Of a stretch of 57,428 bases of DNA, positions 196 through 57,369 are shown in pieces (position 1 is the first letter of the stretch; each line of letters opens with the position of its first letter). The stretch lies in the NCBI GenBank assembly GCA_020860565.1, contig JAJBUA010000096.1:1-57428 (forward strand). Reading direction: 5' to 3'. The position numbers and the translations under genes are program-made. The notes under the pieces were generated by a model, which saw nothing but the letters and a program-made list of their open reading frames with translations, was not told where the DNA came from and did not search any database. Origin of the DNA: Clostridiales bacterium (GTDB lineage Bacteria > Bacillota > Clostridia > Lachnospirales > Lachnospiraceae).

Positions 196-200
196 TGTAC

Positions 201-6558: not shown

Positions 6559-6587
6559 ATTATAACAGTTTCCCCTGCGATTGTCTA
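6559..6587 (-). promoter_or_regulatory. Promoter of the uvrB stub
   Basis: On the minus strand TAGACA (6582-6587) and a perfect TATAAT (6559-6564) are 17 bases apart. This gives an untranslated leader of about 180 bases that holds the 6418-6472 hairpin. Confidence 0.65.
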
Positions 6588-6623
6588 CGAGGGCGATCCG
6601 TGACTTTATTTACTTTATACATC

Positions 6624-6648
6624 AAAAAAGGCAGCCGAACTGACTGCC
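6624..6648 (-). terminator. Terminator after the Phd/ParE operon
   Basis: GGCAG-TCAGTTCGG-CTGCC followed by TTTTTT on the minus strand, about 25 bases beyond the toxin gene stop. Confidence 0.75.
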
Positions 6649-6673
6649 ATTACTCTCCCTTACTATCATCCGT

Positions 6674-7262: not shown

Positions 7263-7368
7263 TCATCCCTTCCTTTTAATAGTCATATTCTATCATAATT
7301 TTCATATCTTTTCAATGGTTATACCCATAATTTCTCTGCTTTTTGATCCTCAAATATGCAATGATCAT

Positions 7369-7707: not shown

Positions 7708-7849
7708 TTATTTCCCCAGTTTTCCTCATATTCCTGAGTAATCATCATCCTTCGAAGCTCACCAGAAGACATAAATGGAACCAGATAAGGATTCCCTCCT
7801 TATTATGATTCCATTTTCTCATATCATCTGTCTCAAAATACACTTTAAA

Positions 7850-41831: not shown

Positions 41832-43313
<1,482 letters not shown>

Positions 43314-43319
43314 GGTTCT

Positions 43320-43348
43320 TTTCATTGCATCCTCTTCTGAATTATAGT
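43320..43348 (+). promoter_or_regulatory. Promoter of the AAA/PD-(D/E)XK gene
   Basis: TTTCAT (43320-43325) and TATAGT (43343-43348), 17 bases apart, on the plus strand. The -35 lies only 7 bases beyond the -35 of the divergent GH1 promoter, so the two promoters are back to back. Confidence 0.5.
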
Positions 43349-43393
43349 AAAATGAAGACATCTTCACAGAACCACCATTTCGCAAGGGAGGGA

Positions 43394-44980
43394 ATGTTAT
43401 TGAAATCTTTCAACACGACCGGAGCCTGCTTTCCATCGGTTCACTATATGGTAAATATCGACGGCAAACTCTCTGAAATTCGAAAACTGATCGATAACGG
43501 CAGCTATTTTGTCATGAATCGGCCTCGCCAATACGGAAAAACTACCACACTTGGCCTGCTTGCCGATACTCTGAAAACTTCTTACATTGTAATCTCTCTG
43601 GATTTTCAAGGACTGAGCGACGCAAAATTTAAAAATGAACATGTTTTTTCTGCTGCCTTTGCAAAAGATCTGCTCCGCACAGTCAGGAATCGCAGATTTC
43701 CTGTTCACGGCCTCAATCATGACATTCTGGACAGACTGCAGCAGGACTCTGCCATCGAGAACGAATCTTTCGGCCTTGTAGAATTATTTGTTATTTTAAG
43801 CGAACTATGCGAAACTGCCGAAAAACCGATTGTTTTATTAATTGATGAAGTGGACAGTGCCTCGAATAATCAGGTATTTCTCGATTTTCTTGCCCAGCTT
43901 CGCAATTATTATTTAAAAAGATACACGATAGCGACTTTTCAATCTGTCATTCTGGCTGGTGTTTATGATATTAAAAATCTGAAACTAAAAATACGATCCG
44001 AAACAGAACACCGCTTTAACAGTCCATGGAACATCGCAGAGTCTTTTTCTGTGGACATGAGCTTTTCCGCTGATGATATCGCCGGGATGCTGAAAAATTA
44101 TGAAAATGACCACCAGACCAATATGGATATCCTGCAGATCTCGCAGTGTATTTTTGAATATACGTCCGGCTATCCATTTCTTGTTTCCAGCATCTGTAAG
44201 ATTTTGGACGAACAATTTCAAAAAAATCGTTCTCCCTGGACAACAGCAACGATCGCAAATGCAGTCAATCGGATCTTGACAGAGCGTTCCACTTTGTTTG
44301 ACAGTATGAATCATCAATTGTCCATTTATCCTGACCTGCGTGATATTCTTTACCGAATATTATTTCAGGGGCAACGAATCACTTTTAATCCAGACAATGA
44401 AGCAATCAGTCTCGGCGCCATGTTTGGCTATATTTTTAACGATAAAGGATCCATTTCCATTTCCAATCGAATTTTTGAAATGCGTTTATATAACCTTTTC
44501 CTTTCTGACGAGGAACTCAACAGCATTACTTACCAGGATGCCTTACGTTTACAAAATCAATTCATCCATAATGGTAAATTAAATATGGATCTGGTTTTTC
44601 GTAAATTTATTGATCATTTTTCTGAAGTCTACAGTAATTCTGATCAGAAATTCATTGAAAACCAGGGACGAAAACTATTCCTATTATATTTGAAACCAAT
44701 CATTAACGGAACCGGCCACTATTATGTAGAATCCCAAACGCGTGATATGGAACGCACCGATATTATCGTCGATTACATGGGGGAACAGTTTATTATCGAA
44801 CTGAAAATATGGCGCGGTCTACAATACCACGAAAAAGGGGAAAAACAGCTTTCGGATTATCTTGACCGATATCAAAGCAAAAAAGGATATCTTCTCACCT
44901 TTAATTTCAATAAAGACAAAGAAATCGGTATCAGGGAAGTTTTCTACGAAGACAAAATATTGATTGAGGGAACTGTCTAA
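43394..44980 (+). CDS. AAA-ATPase-like protein with PD-(D/E)XK nuclease fold
   Basis: Protein of 528 residues. The N-terminus (KSFNTTGACFPSVHYMV) and Walker A MNRPRQYGKTTTLGLLAD, with Walker B IVLLIDEVDSASNN, define the AAA-ATPase_like family (PF09820 type). The C-terminal 110 residues (GTGHYYVESQTRDMERTDIIVDYMGEQFIIELKIWRG) are the DUF1703 PD-(D/E)XK domain, with Asp and E-x-K in place. The start is ambiguous: ATG 43394 follows GGGAGGGA almost without spacing, and TTG 43400 has better spacing. These proteins are abundant in gut anaerobes, often many per genome, and are often suspected to be selfish or defence-related; the function is unproven. Codon use is more AT-rich than in the flanking GH genes. 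Confidence 0.88.
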   Translation: MLLKSFNTTGACFPSVHYMVNIDGKLSEIRKLIDNGSYFVMNRPRQYGKTTTLGLLADTLKTSYIVISLDFQGLSDAKFKNEHVFSAAFAKDLLRTVRNRRFPVHGLNHDILDRLQQDSAIENESFGLVELFVILSELCETAEKPIVLLIDEVDSASNNQVFLDFLAQLRNYYLKRYTIATFQSVILAGVYDIKNLKLKIRSETEHRFNSPWNIAESFSVDMSFSADDIAGMLKNYENDHQTNMDILQISQCIFEYTSGYPFLVSSICKILDEQFQKNRSPWTTATIANAVNRILTERSTLFDSMNHQLSIYPDLRDILYRILFQGQRITFNPDNEAISLGAMFGYIFNDKGSISISNRIFEMRLYNLFLSDEELNSITYQDALRLQNQFIHNGKLNMDLVFRKFIDHFSEVYSNSDQKFIENQGRKLFLLYLKPIINGTGHYYVESQTRDMERTDIIVDYMGEQFIIELKIWRGLQYHEKGEKQLSDYLDRYQSKKGYLLTFNFNKDKEIGIREVFYEDKILIEGTV

Positions 44981-45146
44981 ATGAATATGCCTTGCGTCGG
45001 CTCTGTGATCAAACACGAGACTGTGATTAATCTCACAGAGCATTCATGCAGACCTCCCGGGGATTCACACGTTCCCTTGTTTTCGGCTATATTTTTCTCA
45101 CTCACTATCGAACGATTCCGAACCTACGTCGGTTAGTAATATGCGT

Positions 45147-45179
45147 AAACAGGGCGGAGCAATTCACTCCGCCCTGTTT
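45147..45179 (+). terminator. Terminator between convergent genes
   Basis: AAACAGGGCGGAG (45147-45159) pairs with CTCCGCCCTGTTT (45167-45179), followed by TTCTATTTT on the plus strand. It suits the AAA/PD-(D/E)XK gene and may also block the catabolic operon ending at 45189. Confidence 0.8.
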
Positions 45180-45188
45180 TCTATTTTC

Positions 45189-46094
45189 CTACACAAATGC
45201 ACAAAAAGGAGAAGAAAAATTTTCGTCGGCTCCGCTCCCAGCCGGAATTCTATCAAAACCCAAAATGACTCTGCCCGTGTACGATTCTCCTGCTTTCAAA
45301 AATATACCTTTCTCCAGAGAGTTGCTGACAAGAATAGAAACTCCCTTTTCTTCCACCGTAACCATATCCATAGAACTATAAGCAGAAACAGCAAGAGCAG
45401 ACTCCTCATTCACAATCTCCACCATAGGTTTAATCTGTTCATCCTTATAACGAAAACACTGCGCCTCTTTCTCTACCGTCACGAAGGACAATTGATCCCA
45501 CGATGTCTGCTCAACAGGCCTGACAACTCCATCGCAAAAATACTCGGGACAAAACGTACGAACCAAATATTCTGACAACACTGTATCATTCGATAATTGA
45601 AGGAATAAATTACATATTAAATTGATCTCTACCGCTCCATTCGGAGTTAGATACAAATCAATTACAATTCGATTTAAATTAACCCACATGATACGTGCAC
45701 CAATTACAAAAGCAACTCCCTCGCCGCTTTCCTCTTCTGATACTCGAAGCGACAGAAAAACATAATTATCTCCCACCTCATTGACGTCCCATATCTTAGT
45801 ACCCGTGTCTATTTCATATCCTGATATTTTACACGTAACAGAAGAAAAACCAGATGAAATATTTTTTCTACTATCAATAACATTCTTCATATTCCCGTTT
45901 TTATCATGAATATAAATACTGTTAATGAGACATCCTTCATTTGTCAATTCAATATAATCGTCTGTATTATTAGGGATTCGAAAAAGATAAACATCTTTTC
46001 CATTCAGACAATGAGTTTTTCTAACAATAACCTTTTGTTCCAAAATATTATTTCCTTTCTGTTTACCCGAATCCATTTCCCATAAGAGCAACAT
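45189..46094 (-). CDS. Aldose-1-epimerase-fold protein, divergent
   Basis: Protein of about 301 residues with a galactose-mutarotase-like beta fold suggested by DDYIELTNEGCLINSIYIHDKNGNMKNVI at the N-terminus and by LTPNGAVEINLICNLFLQLSND. The usual catalytic His and Glu of mutarotases are not evident, so it may be a binding or atypical epimerase. The start is uncertain: the first ATG overlaps the DUF169 stop (TAATG), a second ATG lies six codons later, and a TTG preceded by AAAGGA lies later still. It is the distal gene of the catabolic island and could process the anomer or conformation of the cluster's sugar acid. Confidence 0.6.
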   Translation of the reverse strand: MLLLWEMDSGKQKGNNILEQKVIVRKTHCLNGKDVYLFRIPNNTDDYIELTNEGCLINSIYIHDKNGNMKNVIDSRKNISSGFSSVTCKISGYEIDTGTKIWDVNEVGDNYVFLSLRVSEEESGEGVAFVIGARIMWVNLNRIVIDLYLTPNGAVEINLICNLFLQLSNDTVLSEYLVRTFCPEYFCDGVVRPVEQTSWDQLSFVTVEKEAQCFRYKDEQIKPMVEIVNEESALAVSAYSSMDMVTVEEKGVSILVSNSLEKGIFLKAGESYTGRVILGFDRIPAGSGADENFSSPFCAFV

Positions 46095-46858
46095 TAAAAC
46101 TCAAGGTAATGTTTCGGCAATCCATCCAGAATATCGCTGGTCAGACTATACGAGGCAATCGGATAACGAAGACCATTCCGGAAGAGTCCCTCTACTCCGT
46201 TCAACGCTCTAACGAGTCCTTTCGGCGTAAATGTTACTCGCAGGTCATTCTCTCCTACTCCAGCAAACTTTCGATCCGCAAAACACGGCAGTGCCAGTGA
46301 CGGCTTCCCTGTCTGAAATGTACGAATCCACGAATCCGAGCATGTAGACTCTCCGACAAATGTAAACTCCAGTTTCTCATATTTTTCATATTGATACCCA
46401 GAAAATAACAAAAATGCCTGCGATGAGTTCATATACAAAACACAAACATCTGGCACAATTCTCCCTGCTGTCAACGGAGACGCAACTATTGCCACATATT
46501 CCGGATCCACACAGTTCAGTGCACGATTATGCGCTTTTGACGCTTCAACATTATTAAACCACACCTTGTTGAACATCTCCCCAGAATACCACTTTACATC
46601 TCTCTCAAACATGCCATGAATTCCTCGGCAATAATTTGCGTGAAAATTGTCAAATTTACAAGCGCTGGTCCAGTTAAATTGCGTCGCATGGCTTACAATC
46701 GTACATGGTGGCAAATGTTTGTTATGAATTCGAACTTTGGGAATAGCCATCAACTCCTCTTCTGTACGGATCCATTTCATTCCTACCGGCGGTGTCGACA
46801 AACGAAGCATTTTTGTCAACCGCGTAACAATATCATTCCAATCATATGTTCTTTCCAC
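46094..46858 (-). CDS. DUF169 domain protein
   Basis: Protein of 254 residues with the DUF169 pattern: LSTPPVGMKWIRTEEEL near the N-terminus, a middle rich in Cys/His (PPCTIVSHATQFNW, SACKFDNFHANYCRG), and the characteristic STCSDSWIRTFQTGKPSLALPCFADRKFAGVGENDLRVTFTP. DUF169 proteins have no firm function; their conserved Cys residues suggest a metal or cofactor site. Soluble, cytoplasmic. It sits between the BKACE gene (51-base gap) and the epimerase-fold gene (1-base overlap). Its co-occurrence with a keto-acid cleavage enzyme is a potentially useful functional clue. Confidence 0.85.
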   Translation of the reverse strand: MERTYDWNDIVTRLTKMLRLSTPPVGMKWIRTEEELMAIPKVRIHNKHLPPCTIVSHATQFNWTSACKFDNFHANYCRGIHGMFERDVKWYSGEMFNKVWFNNVEASKAHNRALNCVDPEYVAIVASPLTAGRIVPDVCVLYMNSSQAFLLFSGYQYEKYEKLEFTFVGESTCSDSWIRTFQTGKPSLALPCFADRKFAGVGENDLRVTFTPKGLVRALNGVEGLFRNGLRYPIASYSLTSDILDGLPKHYLEF

Positions 46859-46909
46859 GATTTCACTTCCTTCTTATTGCCAAAATCACTAATAATAAAC
46901 AACAATCGC

Positions 46910-47839
46910 CTAATAGAGTACTTTGTTTTTTCCTTTTAGTCCCAGAATCTCCCTCGCCTCATCCGGAGTCGCTGGTTCAAGGCCCAAAGTCTGGGCAATC
47001 GTTACCGCCGCCTTGACCTGCTGTGCGTTTGATTCTGCCAACTGGTGTGGGCGAATATAAAGATTATCCTCGAGCCCAACTCTTACATTCCCTCCCATGG
47101 CCATGGCCGCCGCGGCCAAAGGTAGCTGATTTCTTCCAGCCGCAGCCACAGACCATGTAAAATTGTCCCCCAGCATTTTTTCAGCAGAAGCTCGTAAAAA
47201 GACCAAATTGTCAACGCTGGCTGGTATGCCGCCCTGTATCCCCATAACAAACTGAAGATATATAGGCGCTGTCAGAATACCTTTATTGCGAAAATACGCG
47301 ACATTATTGATCATACCCGCATCATATATCTCAAATTCCGGCACTGTTCCATTTTCCTGCATTATTCTTATATATGTTTCCATTCCATAGTAAGTATTTG
47401 TAAACACATTATTATACGTGGCGCTTAAATAGTCGTATTCCCATTTTGGATCGTCCGGCTTTAAATGCGAAACCAGTCCCGACAGTACGAAATTCATAGA
47501 ACCAGCATTACATGACGCGAGCTCTGGCTTTAACGCGGGAATCACCGAAATACGTTCTTCAACCGTCATCATCTGACTCCCTCCCGTGGTAATACAGATA
47601 ATAGCGTCACATTTTTCCTTAATCCCCCCTGCCACTTCCCTGATCAGTTCAATATCAGAAGATGGTTCCCCTGTTTTGCGATCTCGTCCATGAATGTGAA
47701 TTGACGCCGCGCCAGCCGCACATGCGTCCGCCGCCTGACGAATAATATCCTCTGGTTTAACCGGCAGATACGGACTCATGCTCTCCATATGCGCCGTCCC
47801 GACAACCGCGGCAGTAATAATCACCTTTTTCCTTCCCAT
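46910..47839 (-). CDS. Beta-keto acid cleavage enzyme (BKACE, DUF849)
   Basis: BKACE TIM-barrel enzyme of 309 residues. KVIITAAVVGTAHMESMSPYLPVKPEDIIRQA starts the barrel. SIHIHGRDRKTGEPSS carries the zinc His pair, CITTGGSQMMTVEERI the next strand, and GGNVRVGLEDNLYI the catalytic and metal Glu. The family condenses a beta-keto acid with acetyl-CoA, yielding acetoacetate and a new acyl-CoA (for example 3-keto-5-aminohexanoate in lysine fermentation). Substrates differ between subfamilies and cannot be read here. Because the neighbours are a sugar-acid dehydratase and a racemase, the substrate is probably a keto acid made from the imported compound. Confidence 0.9.
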   Translation of the reverse strand: MGRKKVIITAAVVGTAHMESMSPYLPVKPEDIIRQAADACAAGAASIHIHGRDRKTGEPSSDIELIREVAGGIKEKCDAIICITTGGSQMMTVEERISVIPALKPELASCNAGSMNFVLSGLVSHLKPDDPKWEYDYLSATYNNVFTNTYYGMETYIRIMQENGTVPEFEIYDAGMINNVAYFRNKGILTAPIYLQFVMGIQGGIPASVDNLVFLRASAEKMLGDNFTWSVAAAGRNQLPLAAAAMAMGGNVRVGLEDNLYIRPHQLAESNAQQVKAAVTIAQTLGLEPATPDEAREILGLKGKNKVLY

Positions 47840-47930
47840 CCGGCATCTCCTTCCCGTTATTTATGTTTATCTGAACATAGTAATTGCCTTCCCTGAGTCG
47901 AAATAACCTCGTATCTATCATCTATAAATT

Positions 47931-49115
47931 TCATCTCACCGTCACCTTAATCGCAGTATCCATTGCCTTTTGACTTAATTCCTGTCCGACTCCCGGCAAA
48001 TCCGGAACTGTGTAATAGCCGTTTACCGGCTGGTAATCATAAATACCTGTCATGATATTTTCCGGAAGCAACGCTGCCTGATTATGCTCATGAATCAGGA
48101 AATTTGGAATAACAGCTTCCAATTGAAGTGCAGCCGCCGTTGCCTGAGGGCCTCCGCAAATATGTGTCTGAACAGCGATATCATAGGTTCGAGCCATGTC
48201 GCAGATTTTTTTACCTTCCGTAAGACCACCACAATTTCCAAGATCTGGCTGGATCACATGGAGAGCATGCTCTTCAAGGAAAGGACGATATCCCCAACGC
48301 GTATAAATGCGTTCGCCGCTGGCAATCGGGATATTGACTTTCTTCGCAATTTCTAACATATTTCCAACATTCATAGGCATTGTCGGCTCCTCATAATAAA
48401 AAATATTAAATTCCTCCAGCATTTTTCCCAGCTGTATCGCGGAATTCAGATCGGTAAGAGAGTGTACCTCAATGATAATATCCATATTTTCTCCTCCGGC
48501 CTTACGTACCGCTTCCACTCGTCTGTACGCGATCTGCAACTGTTCCTGCTCTAAAATACCATTGCATGGCCATCCCTTATACTTTCCGGCCATATTAAAG
48601 CATAATGGATCCACTTTTACACAATCATAACCGTCCTCCTTCGCTTTCAGGCAGGCCTCCCCATATTCTTCCGGCTGAATTAGAACTTTCGCCTTAGGCC
48701 CCCAGTCAAACTGAATCTGGCTTGCATACGCGCGAAGCTTTGTATTTGTCTTACCTCCCAGCAAATTGTATACCGGAGTGTTTAACGCTTTACCCTTAAT
48801 ATCCCACAAAGCAATATCAATAGCGCTCATCGCTCCATAAACAACCGGACCGCCTCCCAAACCCCAGAATGTATTATGCAGTCGAGCCCAGATCGCCTCA
48901 ATATTCTCTGCGTTCATACCGATAATCAGCTTAGCAAAATCTCTGCACATGCCAAACGGCGCTTCTTTCGTGTCCCCATAACACAGCCCTACTTCTCCAT
49001 AACCGCTGATTTCCTCGTCTGTGTTAATACGAACGACAACCGGATTCCACGGGCTCCCCGGAACAGACGGTTGCCCAATTGTAACAAGAAAAATATCAAC
49101 ACTGGTAATCTTCAT
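47931..49115 (-). CDS. Acid-sugar dehydratase, enolase superfamily (DgoD-like)
   Basis: Mandelate racemase/muconate lactonizing enzyme family protein of 394 residues. The start MKITSVDIFLVTIG follows GGAGGGAGATAAAT; an upstream extension overlaps the LarA-like gene. The barrel shows DCVKVDPLCF, IIIEVHSLTDL (metal acid and catalytic His, equivalent to DFHGR-type text of D-galactonate dehydratase), FYYEEPTMPMN (Glu) and IASGERIYTRWGYRP (Glu), with QTHICGGP closing the site. Such enzymes dehydrate aldonates to 2-keto-3-deoxy acids. The exact sugar acid is unknown. It follows the LarA-like gene by 44 bases and precedes BKACE by 91. Confidence 0.9.
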   Translation of the reverse strand: MKITSVDIFLVTIGQPSVPGSPWNPVVVRINTDEEISGYGEVGLCYGDTKEAPFGMCRDFAKLIIGMNAENIEAIWARLHNTFWGLGGGPVVYGAMSAIDIALWDIKGKALNTPVYNLLGGKTNTKLRAYASQIQFDWGPKAKVLIQPEEYGEACLKAKEDGYDCVKVDPLCFNMAGKYKGWPCNGILEQEQLQIAYRRVEAVRKAGGENMDIIIEVHSLTDLNSAIQLGKMLEEFNIFYYEEPTMPMNVGNMLEIAKKVNIPIASGERIYTRWGYRPFLEEHALHVIQPDLGNCGGLTEGKKICDMARTYDIAVQTHICGGPQATAAALQLEAVIPNFLIHEHNQAALLPENIMTGIYDYQPVNGYYTVPDLPGVGQELSQKAMDTAIKVTVR

Positions 49116-49159
49116 ATTTATCTCCCTCCACATATAAATTAATTTATTTTTTCTAAATC

Positions 49160-50380
49160 TTATCGAAAACAGCAAATCGTTCCATCCGGGATAATTGCCA
49201 CTTCCGCCGTCGGAATATGATTTTTCAGCAGCGTCATTACCTCGTCCCACTCTTTAGCAAAAATAACCTTATCAGGCTCATTTAAGCTCATCTTGCTATT
49301 GATATCCGGATATGGAGTATAGTATATAATTCTTCCTATTTTACTGACCGGACGTTTATCAACAGAGTTCCAGCACCGTCCCCCATAATCGGTTCCAAAA
49401 GCACTGTATAGATAATGAACCACCTGCCCCTGAGGGCAATGATTAATCATTACAACATCTCCTCCATCTTTGAGATCCATTGCCGCAATTCGAACGGCTA
49501 TCAACGCTTCATTGTATTTGGCATTGGCGTTAACAAAAATAACATCCTTTTTCTCACCGCTTCTTTTCATGGTGTTTAATTTCTCTGAGATTTCCACCGC
49601 CTGATAATATTCGTCAATCGGATCTCCGGCGCATAAATCAACAATCTCTAATCTGGAATTAATAATCGCGTCAATTTTAAAAAACGGACGAACCATATCT
49701 GTCATCGTTTCGATATCCTTGCGCAAACCACAGGTTTCGGTTGAAAACGGAGCAAATTCCCTACGCGAATGATTTTGATATGTGGTTTCAATTCCGGCAA
49801 GACCCGGAAATATCAGCTTTCCGCCTCCCCCAAAACCATTCAGCGGATGCGGCGATACCGAGCCAATGCCAATCCGAATATCACACTTCATAAACTCTCG
49901 ATTCACCCAGATATTTTGCCCAAAGGAGTCAACTCCCACTTTAACCAAATGTTCATATGGATTATGATTATAAATCGGATATTTCTCTACAATATCCTCC
50001 CCCAGCTTTTTCACAAAATCAGCCCGCGTCAGTGCTCCATGATTCCCAAGGGCACAAAGGAAACGAATATTTTCCTTTCGAATACCAGCGGACAAAAGTT
50101 CTTCTAATACAATCTCTGCAGGAATTCTCGCCGGGGTTCCCCTGCTTAAATCATCAAATACAATAACAGCATTTTTCCCGTTCTTAGCCATATCGCGAAT
50201 TCTCGGCATATGAACAGGATTTTTGATTCTGGCAGCGATCTCCTCGCGCTCCAAAGGTTTACATGCATCTGCTTTCATTTTATAATTCGTAACAAACCAG
50301 CTATCCGGCAAAATAATATCCACCGTTTCCGCCGAACAGTCCCTCCATGCATTCTGCCAAACCTTATAATGCTGCGCCAT
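49160..50380 (-). CDS. LarA-like nickel-pincer racemase/epimerase
   Basis: LarA-family protein of 406 residues. FDDLSRGTPARIPAEIV (about 75-91) is the family's N-terminal motif. His114 (LGNHGAL), His178 (VSPHPLNG), Lys188 (GGGGKLIFPG) and His204 (YQNHSRR) correspond to the LarA His108, His174, Lys184 and His200 that bind the nickel-pincer nucleotide and move hydride. LarA relatives racemise or epimerise 2-hydroxy acids, including sugar acids. No larB, larC or larE is nearby, so the cofactor must be made elsewhere. Between the DUF6282 hydrolase (23-base gap) and the dehydratase genes, it probably inverts C2 of the imported acid before dehydration. Confidence 0.88.
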   Translation of the reverse strand: MAQHYKVWQNAWRDCSAETVDIILPDSWFVTNYKMKADACKPLEREEIAARIKNPVHMPRIRDMAKNGKNAVIVFDDLSRGTPARIPAEIVLEELLSAGIRKENIRFLCALGNHGALTRADFVKKLGEDIVEKYPIYNHNPYEHLVKVGVDSFGQNIWVNREFMKCDIRIGIGSVSPHPLNGFGGGGKLIFPGLAGIETTYQNHSRREFAPFSTETCGLRKDIETMTDMVRPFFKIDAIINSRLEIVDLCAGDPIDEYYQAVEISEKLNTMKRSGEKKDVIFVNANAKYNEALIAVRIAAMDLKDGGDVVMINHCPQGQVVHYLYSAFGTDYGGRCWNSVDKRPVSKIGRIIYYTPYPDINSKMSLNEPDKVIFAKEWDEVMTLLKNHIPTAEVAIIPDGTICCFR

Positions 50381-50403
50381 ATCTTACCTCCGATTCAATA
50401 CAA

Positions 50404-51282
50404 CTATTCCAGTCCCATCAGGATAGCCGGGTTTTTCTTAGCCATAATGTCAATCTCCTGTTCAGTAATGCCAAATCGCTCCATCATCAAACACATAAAA
50501 CGATACATTCCTTCTACAGGGGAGCCATTTCCTTTCTGACCCATATCCGTATCCAGAACCAACCGATCGTGAGGAATCTCTCTCAACATTTCTTCCAGTA
50601 TGGAAATCGGCAGCGGACCCATTTTGGAACCATCCGAAAAGACACAAACATTCAATTCAATATAAGCTCCCAGCTCCGCCCATTGCCGCATTTGCTCATA
50701 AGTGGCACCGATATGAAAATGCGGATGATTTACCAATATCTTTTTTACTCCCAGCTCAACTGCCTTTCGGACGAGGACATCCACTTCCCGCGCGGAACCA
50801 TGTCCTGTACCCAGAGTTATATTTTTCTCTGCCATATATTTCAGCACCTCTACCGCATCCGGATCCAGCCTGCCTTCGTCATCCACATATACAACCGGAG
50901 TTTCAGGGACTGACATTTTTCCCGCGCCCGCAAAGCCTCCCTTATGGGCATCCATATGATTTTTGCTTGATACTGTAGGGAAATAAATGATCTTGGCTCC
51001 CATCCCATATGCCGCGTCTACTGCGTTTAGATTGAACAATCCCACGGAATGGTTTAAACACATACTCCCAAAAATTTCCACCTTACCATTTCCCAAATGT
51101 TTTTGAATCATCTGGCATCCCATCATACTTGGGAAATAATGATCCTTGACCAAAAAGCCACGATAACCAGCCTCTTGTGCCTCCCGCAACATTTCCGCGG
51201 CATCCAGTTCTCTCTGCGCTACCGACGGCCCCGCATGAATATGGATGTCAATTACTCCATTTAATAACCTAGCTCTGTCCAT
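50404..51282 (-). CDS. DUF6282 family metal-dependent hydrolase
   Basis: Amidohydrolase-like TIM barrel of 292 residues. The start MDRARLLNGVIDIHIHAGPS is set by AGGAGGTTTTT; an upstream frame of 15 codons is ignored. HIHAGP carries the first metal His pair, LVKDHYFP and VNHPHFHIGAT further His residues, and LVLDTDMGQKGNGSP the catalytic Asp. It belongs to the DUF6282 group of putative metallohydrolases, probably lactonases or amidases, without a defined reaction. It is the first gene of the part of the cluster divergent from the sigma-54 activator. Confidence 0.82.
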   Translation of the reverse strand: MDRARLLNGVIDIHIHAGPSVAQRELDAAEMLREAQEAGYRGFLVKDHYFPSMMGCQMIQKHLGNGKVEIFGSMCLNHSVGLFNLNAVDAAYGMGAKIIYFPTVSSKNHMDAHKGGFAGAGKMSVPETPVVYVDDEGRLDPDAVEVLKYMAEKNITLGTGHGSAREVDVLVRKAVELGVKKILVNHPHFHIGATYEQMRQWAELGAYIELNVCVFSDGSKMGPLPISILEEMLREIPHDRLVLDTDMGQKGNGSPVEGMYRFMCLMMERFGITEQEIDIMAKKNPAILMGLE

Positions 51283-51374
51283 AAAAACCTCCTGCTCATA
51301 TTTATAATAGATATGTCTTTTATCCACCCGAAATACTAAAATCGGTTTGTCCTGTGGATATTTTGATTAAATTA

Positions 51375-51383
51375 TGGTATAAT
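51375..51383 (+). promoter_or_regulatory. Extended -10 promoter of the sigma-54 activator
   Basis: TGGTATAAT (51375-51383) on the plus strand is a perfect extended -10. The -35 17 bases upstream (TGGATA) is weak. The activator gene starts about 110 bases downstream. Confidence 0.55.
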
Positions 51384-51490
51384 AATACAATTATCAAAAA
51401 ATTGCCTGTAAATGTTTCATCTGTAGTATAAAAGGGTAACCCTAAAGTCAAATACTTTTTACCTCAAAACTATAAAAAAGGATTAAAATC

Positions 51491-52933
51491 ATGAGTTTAG
51501 ACAACCTCGAAATTAATTACCAGTCCATTCTTGATGCGCTCGGTACTCCCATTCATATCATTGACACGAAGGGCTTTCTTGTTTTCGCGAATATTGCATG
51601 GGAACAAATGATCGGTATCTCACGAACAGACGCAATTGGCCTCCCTATCGATGAAGTGCTTGACGAGCAGCATAAAGGATTTTATTTTTCTGTTGATTTT
51701 GACGCAAAAAATGAAACAGCCAAATTTAACCATTTTGAAGAAAAAATCAATCAGCCCGTTGCATTTACCGCACTCGCGCAGGAAAAACAGGTTTCCATGT
51801 TCGGCTTCTCTAATTCAAATAATCAGGTTATCTTTACCAGTTCCCCTATCTATCAGGGACAGGATATAAAATATATCCTGACCGTCTGCCAGGATTTAAC
51901 GAATTCCTCCCAGCTGTTAGATGAATTAAAGGTCGCTATCGAAAAGAACAATCTGATCTCAGAGGAGTTAAAATTTTATCGCAATATGGCTATATCTCCT
52001 AATATCGTAAGCAAGAGCCCAAAAATGCTGGCCCTCCTTAAAGAAGCTTCTTATGTGGCAAACACTGACGCTACCATCTTGATTACCGGGGAATCCGGCG
52101 TCGGTAAAGAAGTCCTCACAAATGAAATATACCAAAAGAGCAATCGGAAAGGACAACCTTTTATCCGGGTAAACTGTGCCGCCATACCGGAGTCGCTCAT
52201 AGAAAGTGAACTCTTTGGATATGAAAAGGGCGCTTTTACCGGTGCTTCTAAAAATAAACCTGGCATGTTTGAACTGGCAAATAAGGGGACTCTATTATTG
52301 GACGAAATCGGTGAACTCCCAAAACCCCTTCAGCCTAAGCTGCTGCGGGTTCTTCAAAACCACGAGATTTTTCGCGTGGGCGGCACCAGAAACATTCCCA
52401 TTGACGTTCGTCTGATCGCTGCGACCAATCAAGATTTACAGGACATGGTTCAACAGGGAACATTCCGATCCGACCTGTTCTATCGGTTGAATTTAATTTC
52501 CTTTCACATCCCTCCTCTGCGCGAAAGATGTGAAGATATTCCTCTTTTGACAACCCAGTTCCTAAATAAATTTAACAAAAAATACGGAAAAAATAAGCAA
52601 ATCACAACCGGCGCACTGCAAATTTTGCAAAACTACAAATGGCCGGGCAATATACGGGAACTGGAAAATCTACTGGAACGCATGGTTATCATCGGCGACG
52701 ACAACTGGATCTCTGCTTCTAGATTAAGCGCTTATTTGGCCGAAAACAACAAAACGATTTTAGGAACTGAAAATAATAACTCTTCCCTCAAAGAAATGGT
52801 TACAAATTATGAAAAAAATATTCTGTTAGATGCCTTAACCCGTTACGGCACAACCTATAAAGTTGCGGAGGTATTAAATACCCCCCAGCCCACCATAGCG
52901 AGAAAAGCAAAATTGTATGGCCTAAAATGGTAA
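51491..52933 (+). CDS. PAS - AAA - Fis sigma-54-dependent activator
   Basis: Bacterial enhancer-binding protein of 480 residues. A PAS domain (about 10-135, SILDALGTPIHIIDTKGFLVFANIAWEQMIG) probably senses a small ligand. The AAA core has GESGVGKE (Walker A, about 198), ESELFGYEKGAFTGAS (the GAFTGA loop that contacts sigma-54), LLLDEIGELP (Walker B) and RLNLISFHIPPLRER. A Fis-type HTH closes the protein (DALTRYGTTYKVAEVLNTPQPTIARKAKLYGL). It sits inside the catabolic island, divergent from the DUF6282-side operon and convergent with the amidohydrolase gene, so it is the likely local regulator. Unlike the flanking genes, it is on the plus strand. Confidence 0.95.
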   Translation: MSLDNLEINYQSILDALGTPIHIIDTKGFLVFANIAWEQMIGISRTDAIGLPIDEVLDEQHKGFYFSVDFDAKNETAKFNHFEEKINQPVAFTALAQEKQVSMFGFSNSNNQVIFTSSPIYQGQDIKYILTVCQDLTNSSQLLDELKVAIEKNNLISEELKFYRNMAISPNIVSKSPKMLALLKEASYVANTDATILITGESGVGKEVLTNEIYQKSNRKGQPFIRVNCAAIPESLIESELFGYEKGAFTGASKNKPGMFELANKGTLLLDEIGELPKPLQPKLLRVLQNHEIFRVGGTRNIPIDVRLIAATNQDLQDMVQQGTFRSDLFYRLNLISFHIPPLRERCEDIPLLTTQFLNKFNKKYGKNKQITTGALQILQNYKWPGNIRELENLLERMVIIGDDNWISASRLSAYLAENNKTILGTENNNSSLKEMVTNYEKNILLDALTRYGTTYKVAEVLNTPQPTIARKAKLYGLKW

Positions 52934-52941
52934 AATGCCTT

Positions 52942-54123
52942 CTAACGAACCATATCCATAAATTCCACACTGCGATAACAGGTACGACCCGCTTTTAAGG
53001 TCATTTGCGGGACCAGAAGCTGATACGCCGACAGGTGATTTCCATAAGAATCCCGAAAATCAAACTTTCCTTCGATTATTTTCATTATTGAGACGTCCGC
53101 CAGCGCCCCGGGCTTTAAGGTTCCTATCTCTCCTTGCATTCCCATGAGCTCAGCGGGTGTCTCTGTGCAACAGCGGACCACCTCGTTCAGCGTCATTCCC
53201 AACGCCAGAAAGCGCGCCATGGTAACCGGCAATGAAAACAATCGTTCCTGATACGCACTAAACGTAATCAGATCTGTACTTATTACATCTGGAAGAAAGC
53301 CTTGTTCAATCGCTGCGCTCGCTACAGGAAACGCACAGTGAATTCTCCCCTGAGCACTGTCAAAAATCACTCCCCGCTCTCTGGCTTGCCATACCTCCGG
53401 ATGAATTTTTCTGTTTTTATCTAAGATGCTGTATGTTCCCATAGCCTGAAAACTGTGGCATAATACATCGCCTTTCCCCATACAGGAAATAATTTCTGTC
53501 ATTGGTTCGAGCGGAAAAGTGGCATGCAATGATAACCGGGTTTCAAATTTCCGTGCCAATTTCACGCTCTCCACTAACGGCTTCAACCCCTTCCCCTCGG
53601 AAATATCCTTGCCAATCCGCAGCTTTAATCCATAAATATACGACCGGTATCGTTCAAAAAGATACTCCATCGCACGTACATCATAAAGCTCCGGACTGAT
53701 ATTTTCCATATAGCCTGCACCAGCCAGCCCTCCTGTTGTCACATTCACAGAAGCCTTTAACGTCATCATCGCAGGCATAATACGATTACGGACAAAGTTC
53801 TCAAACGCGTTAGTTCCAATACTCCCCGCGTCTACCGCAGCTGTAACTCCGTTGGGAATACAAAACAGATCCGGCTGAATACCGGAAGTATTCCATGAAA
53901 AATGTACATGATGGTCAATCAGGCCAGGAAAAATATAATATCCGGAACAGTTAATAATTTCTTTTACATCTGATTGGTCAATATGACCATTTTCCGGTAA
54001 CTCTACTATTTTACTGTTTCTAATAAGGATGTCTCCTTCACCATCTATACCTCGAGCTGGATCTACGATATGTCCCCCTCTGAGCCAAAAATTATATCTA
54101 CGCTCAGGTTCTATAATTTTCAT
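52942..54123 (-). CDS. Amidohydrolase/deacetylase family metallohydrolase
   Basis: Amidohydrolase-superfamily enzyme of 393 residues. NFWLRGGHIVDPARGIDGEGDILI is the N-terminal beta sandwich. FPGLIDHHVHFSW holds the first metal pair, YGLKLRIGKDISEGKG the likely carboxylated Lys, SLHATFPLE and LCHSFQAMG the later His residues, and ISTDLITFS the catalytic Asp. This resembles the EF_0837-type subgroup of dihydroorotase-like enzymes. The substrate is unknown; hydrolysis of an N-acyl or cyclic amide of the imported compound is plausible. It follows dctM by 92 bases with a GCCATGGC-centred hairpin between, so it probably belongs to the TRAP operon. Confidence 0.86.
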   Translation of the reverse strand: MKIIEPERRYNFWLRGGHIVDPARGIDGEGDILIRNSKIVELPENGHIDQSDVKEIINCSGYYIFPGLIDHHVHFSWNTSGIQPDLFCIPNGVTAAVDAGSIGTNAFENFVRNRIMPAMMTLKASVNVTTGGLAGAGYMENISPELYDVRAMEYLFERYRSYIYGLKLRIGKDISEGKGLKPLVESVKLARKFETRLSLHATFPLEPMTEIISCMGKGDVLCHSFQAMGTYSILDKNRKIHPEVWQARERGVIFDSAQGRIHCAFPVASAAIEQGFLPDVISTDLITFSAYQERLFSLPVTMARFLALGMTLNEVVRCCTETPAELMGMQGEIGTLKPGALADVSIMKIIEGKFDFRDSYGNHLSAYQLLVPQMTLKAGRTCYRSVEFMDMVR

Positions 54124-54215
54124 ACCAGACTCCTCTCTTGTCTCGCATAAAGATCACAGGATATTTTCGATATCAGTGAGAGACGGCCATGGCTGTCTCC
54201 CACCAACACTCATAA

Positions 54216-55496
54216 TTAACCAAACACATTCACAAATACCATGCTGATCGCAGGAACAAAACCAATTATAATCTCCGCAACCACTAATCCTGCGATAAAT
54301 GGCATAGCAGCCTTTGTAATCTTATCAATGCTGATTCCTGTCATTGAAGCACCTACAAACAAATTACTGGCAACCGGAGGCGTTACAAACGCGACCGAAA
54401 GAGCTAAAATAACAATAACACCAAAATGAATCGGATCGATCCCTACTGCCGTCGCAACAGGAAGCAGCAATGGGGAAATAATTACAATCATCGGGCTGGT
54501 CTGTACAAACATACCGGCCACAAACAAAAACGCATACATCAGCAGTACAATAATATATGGGTTGCTTGAAATTCCCAGGAAAAAGTTTTTGATTACCGTG
54601 GTATAACCCAAATACGCAAAAACCGCTCCCATGGCTCCTGCAGGCGCGAAGCAATACATCATACCACCAAGAAAATTCACTTTGCTCTTGAACAACGGAA
54701 CAATATCTCTAGGCTTCATTTCCCGGTATAAAAACAGGCCAACAATCAAACCATATACACAAGAAACCACTCCTGCTTCAGTTGCCGAAAAAACACCCGA
54801 ATAAATGCCACCCAAAATAATCAAAGGCATAAATATTGCCCATTTTCCGTCCCAAACAGCCGCCAGAAATTCTTTGACTCCTGTTTTTCTCGGAATCACG
54901 CTCTTGTATCCATATTTCTTGCTGACAATATAGTTAATAAGAATCAGGATTCCTCCTACCACAATAGAGGGTCCCCAGCCAGCAAGGAACATATCTCCAA
55001 TTGAGACATCATTTGTCACCGCATATAATACCATCGGAAAGGAGGGAGGGACAATAATACCAAGTCCGCCGGCAACACATATAAGACCAACTGCGTATCC
55101 CTTATCGTATCCGTCACGCACCATCGAAGGAATCATGAACATACCGATTGCCGCCACAGTTGCGTTTGCAGATCCGGAAACAGCTCCAAAGAACATACAT
55201 GCCAGAATCGCGACGATCCCCAGCGACCCTGTAACATTTCCTACTAATGAATTGGCAATACGAATCAGTCTTTTAGAAATTCCACCGCGATCCATTATAT
55301 CCCCTGCCAACATAAAAAACGGGATACATAACATTGTAAAATCTGCCATTTTTGTGTACAGAAACTGCGCCAAAAATTCATAACTGGTAATCTTAGTTAC
55401 AGTAACCAGCGCAGCAATCGGCAGACCTATGGAAGTGCCGATCGGAACTCCCAGAAACAGAAGGGCAAACATCAAAACAAATATCATTGCAATCAT
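54216..55496 (-). CDS. dctM: TRAP transporter large permease DctM
   Basis: TRAP large membrane subunit of 426 residues with about 12 hydrophobic segments. LLFLGVPIGTSIGLPIAALV and the conserved FSKRLI-like and GAVSGSANATVAAIGMFMIPSMVRDGYDKGYAVGLICVAGGLGIIVPPS motifs define the family. The last segment ends in MVFVNVFG. It imports a carboxylic acid with Na+ together with DctP and DctQ. Its start immediately follows the dctQ stop (TAAATG), typical coupling. The ligand is probably the sugar acid or hydroxy acid degraded by the neighbouring enzymes. Confidence 0.95.
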   Translation of the reverse strand: MIAMIFVLMFALLFLGVPIGTSIGLPIAALVTVTKITSYEFLAQFLYTKMADFTMLCIPFFMLAGDIMDRGGISKRLIRIANSLVGNVTGSLGIVAILACMFFGAVSGSANATVAAIGMFMIPSMVRDGYDKGYAVGLICVAGGLGIIVPPSFPMVLYAVTNDVSIGDMFLAGWGPSIVVGGILILINYIVSKKYGYKSVIPRKTGVKEFLAAVWDGKWAIFMPLIILGGIYSGVFSATEAGVVSCVYGLIVGLFLYREMKPRDIVPLFKSKVNFLGGMMYCFAPAGAMGAVFAYLGYTTVIKNFFLGISSNPYIIVLLMYAFLFVAGMFVQTSPMIVIISPLLLPVATAVGIDPIHFGVIVILALSVAFVTPPVASNLFVGASMTGISIDKITKAAMPFIAGLVVAEIIIGFVPAISMVFVNVFG

Positions 55497-56117
55497 TTAT
55501 TTTCCTTCCCCCCTTTTCACGTTTACCCCATCCATATATGCTTTCCGCTCCGCAACACCTTCCTCCCAGATAGCATCCAGATCAAAGGCCGACTTCGATT
55601 TTCCAAGCTCCTGCGGCTGTTCTTTTAACAGCTTTATCACTTCCTGAACCGCGCGCAGGATACTAAGTGTCAGCAGGAAAACCATGATTCCGTAAATATA
55701 CACTTTCGGGAGCCGGGTAACCGTATAAACCTGTTTCATTTTCATCATATTCAGGACTATCTGATATAAAAAATATGTCAGAAATCCTGTGAATCCGGCA
55801 TGGATAATTGCGGAAAGAATCATCATGACTTTTTTAATTTTAAATGGCGCTATAGAAAGCAACATGTCAATCCGCATGTTCTGCCGAGTAGTCACCGCAC
55901 CAGAAACACCGCTGTAAATCAGAATAACAAAACCAATGATAGAGGTTTCCTCAATCCATGCCCATGAAATTTTAAAGACATAACGGCCAATAACCTGAAT
56001 CGTCAGTACAATCGTAATATAGATAAAAGCAATCAAACCTATATAAGTTTCGAAATGCATCAATATTTCCCTGCCCCATGTCTTTTCTGTCTTCAACGAA
56101 TCAAACAAGTGCATCAA
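55497..56117 (-). CDS. dctQ: TRAP transporter small permease DctQ
   Basis: TRAP small membrane subunit of 206 residues with four hydrophobic segments (LIAFIYITIVLTIQVIGRYVF, EETSIIGFVILIYSGVSGAV, KVMMILSAIIHAGFTGFLTYFLYQ, VYIYGIMVFLLTLSILRAV). Family marks are VIGRYVFKISWAWIEE and TTRQNMRIDML. The first ATGs (ATGATG) lie just after a poor ribosome site, and a later Met exists, so the exact start is less certain. The charged C-terminal tail of about 45 residues is longer than in many relatives. It lies 58 bases after dctP. Confidence 0.92.
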   Translation of the reverse strand: MMHLFDSLKTEKTWGREILMHFETYIGLIAFIYITIVLTIQVIGRYVFKISWAWIEETSIIGFVILIYSGVSGAVTTRQNMRIDMLLSIAPFKIKKVMMILSAIIHAGFTGFLTYFLYQIVLNMMKMKQVYTVTRLPKVYIYGIMVFLLTLSILRAVQEVIKLLKEQPQELGKSKSAFDLDAIWEEGVAERKAYMDGVNVKRGEGK

Positions 56118-56175
56118 TCCTCCTCGTCTTTCTTTACATGTATAGACTCTGAGTCAATTATACGTACTTTTATAA

Positions 56176-57369
56176 TTAACCTTCGCTCTCCTCGATAGCC
56201 ACCATCAACTTACTCCAGCCCTCCTCGCCGATAATTTCTTCACAGGACGCCCTGGTCTTTGCAGAAGATTCAACAAACGCATTATATTCTTCCTCTGTCA
56301 GATCAGTAATGACAATTCCATAAGCCTCCAACTGAGACCGCAGCGTATTCTGAGTATCAATCAATGCCTGATAACAGGCCTGCGTAGCATCCTGAGACGC
56401 TTCATCAATCCACGCCTGTTCCTCCTCGGACAGAGACTGATAATAATCATCACTGCAGACAAACATTGATATATTCGGCAAATGATTCAGCATAGTAATA
56501 TAACCCTGAACTTCATAAAATTTTCTGGAGACAATCGAAATAATCGGATTGTCCTGTCCATCGCAGAGTTTCTGTTGCAAAGCCGTAAACAACTCAGAAA
56601 AGGAAACTGTCATAGTAGAAGCTCCTAATTCCTCAAACAGCGCCAGCTCCGTAGGATCACTCTGCACACGAATTTTCATACCCTTTAGGTCAGAAGGAAG
56701 ATGAATTTCTTTTGTATTGTTTGTAATTGTGCGCATTCCAAGGTACATAAACCCGGTCGCTCTAATACCCGTATCTTCCAGAAGCTGCCCAATCATTTGA
56801 TCACCTATCTCCCCAGACATAACCTTATAAGTTGTCTCGTCATTAGGGAAGATAAACGGTGTATTGCAAGGAGTAAATGCTGTTGTATAATCACCCCAGT
56901 TGCCGACGCCTACCTCCGCAAACTCAAACGCATTGGTTACCAGACCATTAATGATGTCATCTGTACTGCTTGCCAGCTGATTAGCAGGATACACCTGGGC
57001 AACCATAGTACCTCCGGATAATTCCTCTAATCGATCTACAAAAGTTTTAAACATGACTCCTGAAGCGGAGACACCGTAATCAGAAGCGCCCATTGAAACA
57101 GAAAGACGTACAATCTTGGTTCCTGCCTCTACGTTATTAATATAATCCGGTATTTCGTAAACATCTCTGGCCAATCCCACTGTTACCTCGTTAGCCCCTT
57201 CCTCATTTCCTGCTTCCACCGTCTCTGTTTCCTGCGCTTCATTTGCCGCTGATTCAGCCGCTACAGTAGTTACGGTAATTCCTGTTGTAGAATTGCCAAG
57301 CCCACAGGCTGAACAAAAAAGCATTACCGTCAATGTCGCTGCCAAAACTTTTCTTAACTTACTTTTCAT
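56176..57369 (-). CDS. dctP: TRAP transporter substrate-binding lipoprotein DctP
   Basis: TRAP solute receptor of 397 residues. The signal MKSKLRKVLAATLTVMLFCSAC ends at lipobox Cys22 (the -3 residue is Cys, slightly unusual). An Ala/Glu/Thr-rich linker runs to about residue 65, then the receptor domain begins near VTVGLARDVYEIPDYINN. Family marks are KTFVDRLEELSGGTMVAQVYPANQLASSTDDIINGL, LKGMKIRVQSDPTELALFEELGASTMTVSFSELFTALQQKLCDGQDNPI (with the carboxylate-binding Arg) and LSEEEQAWIDEAS. It binds a carboxylate ligand outside the cell. First gene of the TRAP operon; a good GGAGG site precedes the ATG. Confidence 0.95.
   Translation of the reverse strand: MKSKLRKVLAATLTVMLFCSACGLGNSTTGITVTTVAAESAANEAQETETVEAGNEEGANEVTVGLARDVYEIPDYINNVEAGTKIVRLSVSMGASDYGVSASGVMFKTFVDRLEELSGGTMVAQVYPANQLASSTDDIINGLVTNAFEFAEVGVGNWGDYTTAFTPCNTPFIFPNDETTYKVMSGEIGDQMIGQLLEDTGIRATGFMYLGMRTITNNTKEIHLPSDLKGMKIRVQSDPTELALFEELGASTMTVSFSELFTALQQKLCDGQDNPIISIVSRKFYEVQGYITMLNHLPNISMFVCSDDYYQSLSEEEQAWIDEASQDATQACYQALIDTQNTLRSQLEAYGIVITDLTEEEYNAFVESSAKTRASCEEIIGEEGWSKLMVAIEESEG

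What the first reader, a model, noticed from the sequence alone, without database searches (positions are those of the whole stretch)
45189..57369. Undescribed hydroxy-acid/sugar-acid catabolic island
Seen: TRAP transporter, amidohydrolase, sigma-54 activator, DUF6282 hydrolase, LarA-like racemase, DgoD-like dehydratase, BKACE, DUF169 and a mutarotase-fold protein, tightly packed on one strand except for the activator. Known: TRAP systems import carboxylates, LarA homologues racemise or epimerise 2-hydroxy acids, DgoD-like enzymes make 2-keto-3-deoxy acids, and BKACE cleaves beta-keto acids with acetyl-CoA. Inference: hydrolysis of an ester, lactone or amide, C2 inversion, dehydration, then retro-Claisen-like cleavage of the imported acid. 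I know of no described pathway with this exact set.
Basis: partly seen in the sequence, partly recalled or inferred. Interest (0 to 1): 0.75.

Follow-up and report, generated by a model that had tools for sequence, protein, structure and literature searches.

The report
Hydroxy-acid breakdown operon, substrate unknown
A gut-type bacterium carries a compact, apparently imported set of genes that looks built to take up and break down an unidentified hydroxy acid or sugar acid, and the same gene order occurs in two Flavonifractor-group genomes, so it is a real unit whose food is not yet known.

Summary
The gene set is real. Ten genes (dctPQM, amidohydrolase, sigma-54 activator, DUF6282, LarA-like, MR/enolase dehydratase-like, BKACE, DUF169) occur in the same order in a Flavonifractor MAG (L002) and another genome of its family (L081), at 61-93% protein identity. 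The mutarotase-like gene is not in L081 and its fold is unconfirmed.

The window ends inside the island. Contig C40 of the same genome carries the missing front: cupin, HpcH/HpaI aldolase and MBL-fold hydrolase, with two 11/12 sigma-54 sites. G1083 has that front contiguous.

This changes the pathway. A DgoD-like dehydratase makes a 2-keto-3-deoxy acid, which the aldolase rather than BKACE would split. The LarA-like protein keeps six cofactor/catalytic positions but has Ile at LarA K298, and LarB was not found in the host assembly; C2 inversion is plausible, not shown.

Sub-modules recur: MR enzyme + LarA family + TRAP/TTT, and DUF6282 + HpcH/HpaI aldolase (11 of 17 plasmid loci viewed; 0 of 6 host-family loci). 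New combination of known families; substrate unknown.

The parts
56176..57369 (-). DctP, TRAP solute-binding protein
   Evidence: PF03480 3.8e-62; 64% and 61% identical copies in L002 and L081
55497..56117 (-). DctQ, TRAP small permease
   Evidence: ORF between DctM and DctP; 62-63% to L002/L081; no family scan was run on it
54216..55496 (-). DctM, TRAP large permease
   Evidence: PF06808 1.2e-99; TIGR00786 above its cut-off
52942..54123 (-). AHYD, amidohydrolase-superfamily hydrolase (PRK12394 type)
   Evidence: NF009060 408 bits, cut-off 442; residues 14-388 of 393 aligned with PDB 8je0 'Amidase', metal-ligand motifs aligned
51491..52933 (+). Sigma-54-dependent activator with PAS domain
   Evidence: PF00158 2e-70, PAS, HTH; 64-65% copies in the same place and orientation in L002 and L081; rpoN present in 3 of 3 genomes
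50404..51327 (-). DUF6282, metal-dependent hydrolase-like protein
   Evidence: PF19799 3.9e-68; D27, H29, H31, K61, H63, H176, E181, H201, E224 and D261 invariant in 10 aligned sequences
49160..50380 (-). LarA-superfamily protein of a clade without the K298 equivalent
   Evidence: PF09861 2.6e-48; below every NCBIfam LarA-group cut-off; residues checked
47931..49115 (-). MR/enolase-superfamily acid-sugar dehydratase-like protein
   Evidence: PF13378/PF02746 (scanned as the longer ORF 47931-49250); best-scoring NCBIfam model galactonate dehydratase, 221 bits, cut-off 311; PDB 2o56 1.3e-139; 93% and 85% to L002 and L081
46910..47839 (-). BKACE, beta-keto acid cleavage enzyme
   Evidence: PF05853 7.3e-107; NF053538 394.7 bits, cut-off 430; HxH and RVGLED motifs aligned with 8rio
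46094..46858 (-). DUF169 (COG2043) protein, function unknown
   Evidence: PF02596 1.5e-41
45189..46094 (-). 301-aa protein overlapping DUF169 by one base; possible aldose-1-epimerase-like fold (by eye), unconfirmed; accessory
   Evidence: no family or credible PDB match; no counterpart in L081

Best explanation
The island is a sigma-54-activated catabolic operon for an exogenous hydroxylated carboxylic acid. Shown by sequence: the gene set, its conserved order, the sigma-54 promoter-like sites, and the missing front (cupin, HpcH/HpaI aldolase, MBL hydrolase) on contig C40. Inferred: TRAP imports the acid or an acyl/lactone derivative; AHYD, DUF6282 and/or the MBL protein hydrolyse it; the LarA-like protein adjusts C2 of the 2-hydroxy acid; the MR enzyme removes water to give a 2-keto-3-deoxy (4-hydroxy-2-oxo) acid; the HpcH/HpaI aldolase splits that to pyruvate plus an aldehyde. 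BKACE then removes a beta-oxo acid with acetyl-CoA, giving acetoacetate plus an acyl-CoA. If the substrate is a dicarboxylate, the aldehyde product would itself be a 3-oxo acid (a semialdehyde), which would explain why aldolase and BKACE sit together; this last link is a guess.
For: Ten-gene order shared by window, L002 and L081; the L002 contig is cut inside DUF169. Front genes: MBL 83% identical at C40:50-787, then HpcH/HpaI aldolase and cupin; contiguous in G1083 (L153/L081). Sigma-54 sites: 12/12 upstream of MBL in L002 and L081, 11/12 upstream of MBL and of cupin on C40 and of cupin in L153; none above 10/12 in the whole window. Aldolase best resembles GarL/HpaI/YfaU. MR enzyme with a LarA-family gene and TRAP in 4 of 15 MR regions (L136, L139, L141, L143; group 22 in the two scanned) and with TTT on a Sporomusa plasmid. 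DUF6282 with HpcH/HpaI aldolase in 11 of 17 plasmid loci viewed, with a cupin as well in 3. BKACE acting on malonate semialdehyde is published for BKACE15 (passages of PMC11961710).
Against: No substrate evidence. LARA lacks the K298 equivalent and LarB was not found in G000 (assembly 95% complete). No aldehyde dehydrogenase or reductase was seen in the island. The DUF6282-to-DUF169 half has no sigma-54 site of 9/12 or better in the right orientation upstream of DUF6282 in window, L002 or L081, and L081 has an 11/12 site (13643, minus) that precedes no obvious gene, so such sites are not free of background. None of 6 DUF6282 loci sampled from the host family carried the aldolase, and none of 15 MR regions carried BKACE or DUF6282.
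Confidence: 0.55

Rival explanations
1. Two substrates or two halves of a conjugate: a hydrolase splits an imported ester or amide; one half goes through LarA-like and MR enzymes and the aldolase, the other half is a beta-keto (or beta-oxidisable) acid for BKACE.
For: Three genes of hydrolase-type families in one island (AHYD, MBL, and DUF6282 by its residue pattern). The sub-modules occur apart elsewhere: MR+Lar+TRAP without BKACE, BKACE+DUF6282+CoA ester lyase+TRAP in haloarchaea with no annotated MR or Lar gene in the regions viewed.
Against: No direct evidence for a conjugate; in the three islands seen the modules occur together, as far as the contigs reach.
Confidence: 0.22
2. One reading: hydrolysis, C2 inversion, dehydration, then BKACE cleavage of the dehydrated acid.
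For: Adjacent MR and BKACE genes. A BKACE is assigned to a sugar-acid pathway (2-deoxy-3-keto-ribonate; passages of PMC6365646).
Against: There the 3-keto acid is made by an SDR dehydrogenase, and none was seen in this island; a DgoD-type dehydratase gives a 2-keto acid; the island has its own HpcH/HpaI aldolase.
Confidence: 0.1
3. The LarA-like protein is not a C2 racemase but catalyses another hydride-transfer reaction, or is inactive in this host. (Compatible with the best explanation and the other rivals, so its odds are not exclusive of theirs.)
For: K298 equivalent is Ile in the window and in 5 of 8 closer relatives in the alignment, Phe or Cys in the other 3, but Lys in the more distant L090. 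The 2020 LarA survey notes that groups changed at positions such as H174 and K298 may not invert a stereocentre (passage). LarB not found in G000.
Against: D72, R75, H108, H174, K184 and H200 equivalents kept in 10 of 10; LarC in 7 of 7 genomes; LarE, LarB and LarC contiguous in G1083; LarB in G776.
Confidence: 0.3
4. A patchwork of unrelated genes brought together by transfer, without one pathway.
For: GC 0.43 against 0.53 in the flank; the one other same-genus genome shown has no DUF6282 match (G172).
Against: Order kept in L002 and L081 despite 66-74% DNA identity and GC of 0.58-0.61 there.
Confidence: 0.06

Closest known systems
Non-phosphorylative acid-sugar catabolism (galactarate/glucarate, GarD/GarL type; rhamnonate RhmD/YfaU type)
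   Same: A dehydratase makes a 2-keto-3-deoxy acid and an HpcH/HpaI aldolase cleaves it; the island's aldolase is nearest to GarL, HpaI and YfaU models and structures. Pathway outline recalled.
   Different: Adds a LarA-family protein, BKACE, DUF169, DUF6282 and a sigma-54 activator; each enzyme that matches an NCBIfam model scores below that model's cut-off.
Oxidative deoxyribonate pathway with BKACE (Pseudomonas simiae; PMC6365646, passages seen)
   Same: BKACE assigned to a 3-keto sugar acid, in an operon with transporters and a lactonase.
   Different: That pathway has an SDR dehydrogenase making the 3-keto acid; none was seen here, and MR and LarA-like genes are added.
Anaerobic phloroglucinol degradation with TAL/BKACE (Clostridium scatologenes; PMC10470551, passages seen)
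   Same: Uses a BKACE-family triacetate lyase and its cluster is reported from F. plautii; our BKACE scores 394.7 bits against a cut-off of 430 for the 3,5-dioxohexanoate model.
   Different: No phloroglucinol reductase, cyclohydrolase or hydroxy-oxo-hexanoate dehydrogenase among the families found in the island.
LarA family with MR enzyme and TRAP/TTT (L136, L139, L141, L143; Sporomusa termitida plasmid pSPTER)
   Same: LarA-superfamily gene in one cluster with a related MR enzyme (53-59% to the window's) and a carboxylate transporter; DUF169 as well in L139.
   Different: The LarA partner is another branch (group 22, NF052515 above cut-off, in L136, L139 and Sporomusa); other genes are 2-hydroxyacyl-CoA dehydratase subunits (L136, L141, L143) or UxaA (Sporomusa), not BKACE.
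DUF6282 + HpcH/HpaI aldolase (+cupin) + TRAP loci on proteobacterial plasmids
   Same: Same families next to each other, e.g. Gemmobacter fulvus, Agrobacterium leguminum.
   Different: No annotated LarA-like gene or DUF169 in the regions seen (the gene table is incomplete); dihydroorotate dehydrogenase-like or SSADH-like genes in several instead; aldolases only 26-38% identical. An 'enolase C-terminal domain-like' gene lies in the Roseomonas region.

Membership tests
LarA nickel-pincer racemase/epimerase | Lar_N domain | tested here: met
   PF09861 164 bits, cut-off 23.3
LarA nickel-pincer racemase/epimerase | Cofactor and acid/base residues D72, R75, H108, H174, K184, H200 | tested here: met
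   identical in all 10 aligned proteins; residue roles from PMC7583248 passages
LarA nickel-pincer racemase/epimerase | Catalytic K298 | tested here: not met
   Ile in the window; I/F/C in 8 relatives, K only in distant L090 (pairwise alignments agree)
LarA nickel-pincer racemase/epimerase | Member of a characterised LarAH group | tested here: not met
   best model LarAH6 191 bits, cut-off 500
LarA nickel-pincer racemase/epimerase | LarB, LarC, LarE in the host genome | tested here: inconclusive
   G000: LarC yes, LarB not found, LarE not tested; G1083 has all three
Acid-sugar dehydratase of the MR/enolase superfamily | MR_MLE N and C domains with three acidic metal-ligand positions and His-Asp pair | tested here: met
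   query motifs EVHS, YYEEP, SGER, QPDL and QTHICGG align with 2o56 and 4e6m at the E/H, E, E, D and H positions; residue roles recalled
Acid-sugar dehydratase of the MR/enolase superfamily | D-galactonate dehydratase equivalog | tested here: not met
   221 bits, cut-off 311
Acid-sugar dehydratase of the MR/enolase superfamily | Dehydratase activity | not testable with these tools
   needs an assay
BKACE | PF05853 domain with Zn-site HxH and conserved RVGLED | tested here: met
   alignment with 8rio; residue roles recalled
BKACE | Named substrate class (NCBIfam equivalog) | tested here: not met
   below all four matching NCBIfam cut-offs
Amidohydrolase superfamily (AHYD) | HxH, K, H, H, D metal site | tested here: met
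   aligned with 8je0; residue roles recalled
DUF6282 as a metal-dependent hydrolase | HxH plus further His/Asp positions; hydrolase activity | tested here: inconclusive
   residues invariant in 10 of 10; PDB profile search reaches only E 0.029 to a phosphotriesterase homologue; activity not testable
Sigma-54-controlled operon | AAA+ activator, -24/-12 site, rpoN | tested here: met
   the sites lie upstream of MBL and cupin, off the window; inside the window's island the best site is 9/12
Aldose-1-epimerase fold (301-aa gene) | GalM family match or fold | tested here: inconclusive
   no match; model pLDDT 34.7

The most novel reading that the evidence does not exclude
A new fermentative route in which an undescribed LarA clade (both histidines, no K298) works with an MR-superfamily dehydratase and an HpcH/HpaI aldolase on an imported hydroxylated dicarboxylate, and BKACE uses acetyl-CoA to remove the resulting 3-oxo acid (semialdehyde) as acetoacetate plus an acyl-CoA, coupling sugar-acid cleavage to C4 (butyrate-type) metabolism.
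Probability: 0.2. Interest if true: 0.7.

Novelty: new variant of a known kind. Interest (0 to 1): 0.5.

Why it matters
It gives genome context to three poorly described families (DUF6282, DUF169 and a K298-less LarA clade) and a testable gene set: one DctP protein to screen for ligand, one dehydratase and one aldolase to assay. DUF6282 next to HpcH/HpaI aldolases in unrelated bacteria, and near a CitE-like lyase in haloarchaea, offers a first functional hint for a family whose name no paper in the searched library uses.

Tried and rejected
AlphaFold models of DUF169 and of the 301-aa gene from single sequences were unusable (mean pLDDT 32.4 and 34.7); no fold search was run on them. A DUF169 profile found no PDB relative (best E 0.87). 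A genome-collection scan with DUF6282 found one relative only; that tool reaches close relatives only. A first sigma-54 scan had an offset error in its filter and gave no hits; corrected, where GG and GC cores were required. LarA plasmid hits were all under 29% identical and were not followed. Pediococcus and Caballeronia MR-enzyme loci gave no useful neighbours (the Caballeronia record has no gene annotation there). Text search for PDB 8JE0 gave chance hits. Phloroglucinol degradation was considered for BKACE and set aside for lack of its other genes. 4-hydroxybutyryl-CoA dehydratase-like, acyl-CoA dehydrogenase-like and Etf-like genes upstream of the L153 front (named by eye) were not included: C40 has a different gene there. 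A CoA-transferase family was found in G000 on another contig, not linked to the island. Of 41 genomes with an MR match only 13 were looked at in width, of 46 DUF6282 plasmid records 17, of 572 BKACE plasmid records 5, of 30 host-family genomes with DUF6282 six.
Full report
What is there. The window is the whole of contig C82 of its genome, G000. Between 45189 and 57369 it encodes, in the direction of transcription (minus strand), DctP, DctQ, DctM, an amidohydrolase (AHYD), then an oppositely oriented sigma-54 activator, then DUF6282, a LarA-like protein, an MR/enolase-superfamily protein, BKACE, DUF169 and a 301-aa protein. Family scans confirm the labels except DctQ, which was not scanned (position and similarity only), and the mutarotase fold, for which nothing was found.

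The unit is conserved. L002 (uncultured Flavonifractor sp., found from DUF6282) and L081 (G1083, found from the LarA-like protein in the family of L002's genome) carry dctP, dctQ, dctM, AHYD, activator (inverted), DUF6282, LarA-like, MR, BKACE, DUF169 in the same order and orientation. Protein identities to the window run from 61% (DctP, L081) to 93% (MR enzyme, L002); DNA identity is 66-74%. L002 has one extra gene, a Mem_trans-family (PF03547) transporter, between dctM and AHYD, and its contig ends inside DUF169. The 301-aa gene has no counterpart after DUF169 in L081. The island is rare in what was searched: in 397 genomes drawn from the host's family 30 have a DUF6282 match at E 1e-5, G000 included, and the best of the others is 41% identical; in 391 genomes drawn from the class the best-scoring LarA-like relative outside G000 is 33% identical; in 400 genomes drawn from L002's family 12 match the LarA-like protein at E 1e-30, two of them (G776, which is L002's own genome, and G1083) at 67%.

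The window cuts the island. L002 and L081 have an MBL-fold gene before dctP. In G000 its 83% counterpart sits at bases 50-787 of contig C40, on the minus strand. C40 is 4579 bp; its first 2.56 kb hold the MBL gene, an HpcH/HpaI aldolase and a cupin, GC 0.417, and the rest is 0.533. In G1083 (L153 and L081, overlapping stretches of contig C14) cupin, aldolase, MBL and dctP follow one another; the aldolases are 80% identical. Low GC (0.43 against 0.53 in the flank) and the lack of a DUF6282 match in the one other same-genus genome shown (G172) suggest horizontal gain.

Regulation. Sites matching 12 of 12 specified bases of TGGCACGN4TTGCW lie upstream of MBL in L002 (442) and L081 (1403); 11/12 sites lie upstream of MBL (859) and of the cupin (2564) on C40, and upstream of the cupin in L153 (12631); in the window no site exceeds 10/12, and in its island none exceeds 9/12. 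L081 also has an 11/12 site at 13643 and a 10/12 site at 12179, both minus strand and not before an obvious gene, and L153 a 10/12 site at 12602 (minus), so the pattern has some background in these GC-rich stretches. rpoN is present in 3 of 3 genomes. No good site precedes the DUF6282 half, whose control is open.

The LarA-like protein. D72, R75, H108, H174, K184 and H200 equivalents are identical in all 10 aligned proteins, but the K298 position is Ile in the window and in 5 of 8 closer relatives, Phe or Cys in the other 3; the more distant L090 has Lys (the pairwise alignments with Mar2 and a LarA agree). The 2020 LarA survey (PMC7583248) lists K298 among the catalytic residues and says groups changed at positions such as H174 and K298 may do something other than inversion (passages). 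A published single-histidine LarA subfamily (PMC12611868; abstract and sections 2.1, 2.5, 2.6 seen) replaces H174 by Asn, which ours does not. LarC is in 7 of 7 genomes and G1083 has LarE-LarB-LarC in a row, but in G000 the LarB query found only a weak match at 36% identity (E 5.6e-4), which I read as a PurE-like protein. G000 is 95% complete, so this is a warning, not a proof.

Recurring sub-modules. MR relatives: 41 of 330 genomes have a match at E 1e-90; I fetched 15 regions from 13 of them. Labelled with home-made profiles, 7 of 15 have DctM (one, L140, a weak match), 4 have LarA-family genes (NCBIfam group 22 for the two scanned), 2 have DUF169, 4 have 2-hydroxyacyl-CoA dehydratase subunits, none has BKACE or DUF6282. 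Of 13 LarA-like loci, L082 (43% identical) has LarA-like, DUF169 and two MR genes; the other 12 have neither MR nor DUF169, and 1 of 13 (L083) has DctM. On Sporomusa termitida plasmid pSPTER an MR gene (54%) is clustered with a tricarboxylate transporter, a group 22 LarA protein and UxaA genes.

DUF6282. Of 46 plasmid records with a match I viewed 17 regions: 11 have an 'aldolase/citrate lyase family protein' within 6 kb, in 8 of them as the neighbouring annotated gene, and in 3 followed by a cupin; seven of those aldolases were scanned and all seven are PF03328. Three 49-kb control stretches on three of the same plasmids had no feature so named, or named CoA ester lyase, among 156. Many of these records are related alphaproteobacteria, so they are not independent. 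Against this, none of 6 DUF6282 loci of the host's family has the aldolase nearby; 3 of those 6 have DctM. Of 5 BKACE plasmid loci viewed, 3 of 4 from haloarchaea have DUF6282, a CoA ester lyase and a TRAP gene within 7 kb and one does not; the bacterial one (Diaphorobacter) has a CoA ester lyase but neither DUF6282 nor TRAP. One DUF6282 locus also had TRAP, aldolase and BKACE (Pseudosulfitobacter).

Mechanism. From established enzymology (recalled), an MR-type sugar-acid dehydratase yields a 2-keto-3-deoxy acid, and an HpcH/HpaI aldolase splits such acids to pyruvate and an aldehyde. BKACE needs a beta-oxo acid; the deoxyribonate pathway (PMC6365646, passages) and BKACE15 acting on malonate semialdehyde (PMC11961710, passages) show that oxygenated and semialdehyde substrates are possible. 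So I place BKACE after or beside the aldolase rather than directly after the dehydratase. The substrate is unknown.

Literature. Nine text searches were run. DUF6282 gave no paper; BKACE with TRAP transporter none; lactate racemase with mandelate racemase and TRAP transporter none; DUF2088 with mandelate racemase none. Searches (DUF169, 16 papers; BKACE, 18 papers), 62 and 63 were used as listings; from 25 and 27 the papers named above, plus PMC11770544 (passages) and PMC10470551 (passages), were opened in part. No paper was read whole. Subscription journals are mostly not in the library.

Noticed in passing
window 1-8000 and 43300-45188: Two further low-GC blocks (0.42 and 0.39) beside 0.53 sequence; 43325-44980 encodes an AAA-ATPase-like protein with a weak PDDEXK nuclease match, possibly a mobile element at the island's edge.
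   Followed up: no
L136, L141, L143: MR enzyme, TRAP and a LarA-family gene (group 22 in L136) run together with two 2-hydroxyacyl-CoA dehydratase subunits; in L136 and L143 also with what look by eye like a CoA transferase and, in L136, an acyl-CoA dehydrogenase: another operon that I did not find described.
   Followed up: partly
L159, L160, L161: Haloarchaeal plasmid clusters with BKACE, DUF6282, CoA ester lyase, 2-dehydropantoate reductase, LLM flavin oxidoreductase and TRAP genes.
   Followed up: partly
L081:13850-15811: A second sigma-54 activator with a longer N-terminal region lies directly after DUF169 in G1083.
   Followed up: no
G000 genome, C92:26968-28380: LarC is present but no LarB counterpart was found in the assembly.
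   Followed up: partly
L142, L144, L132: MR genes lie on both sides of an amino-acid-permease-like gene (label by eye) in three genomes of L002's family.
   Followed up: no
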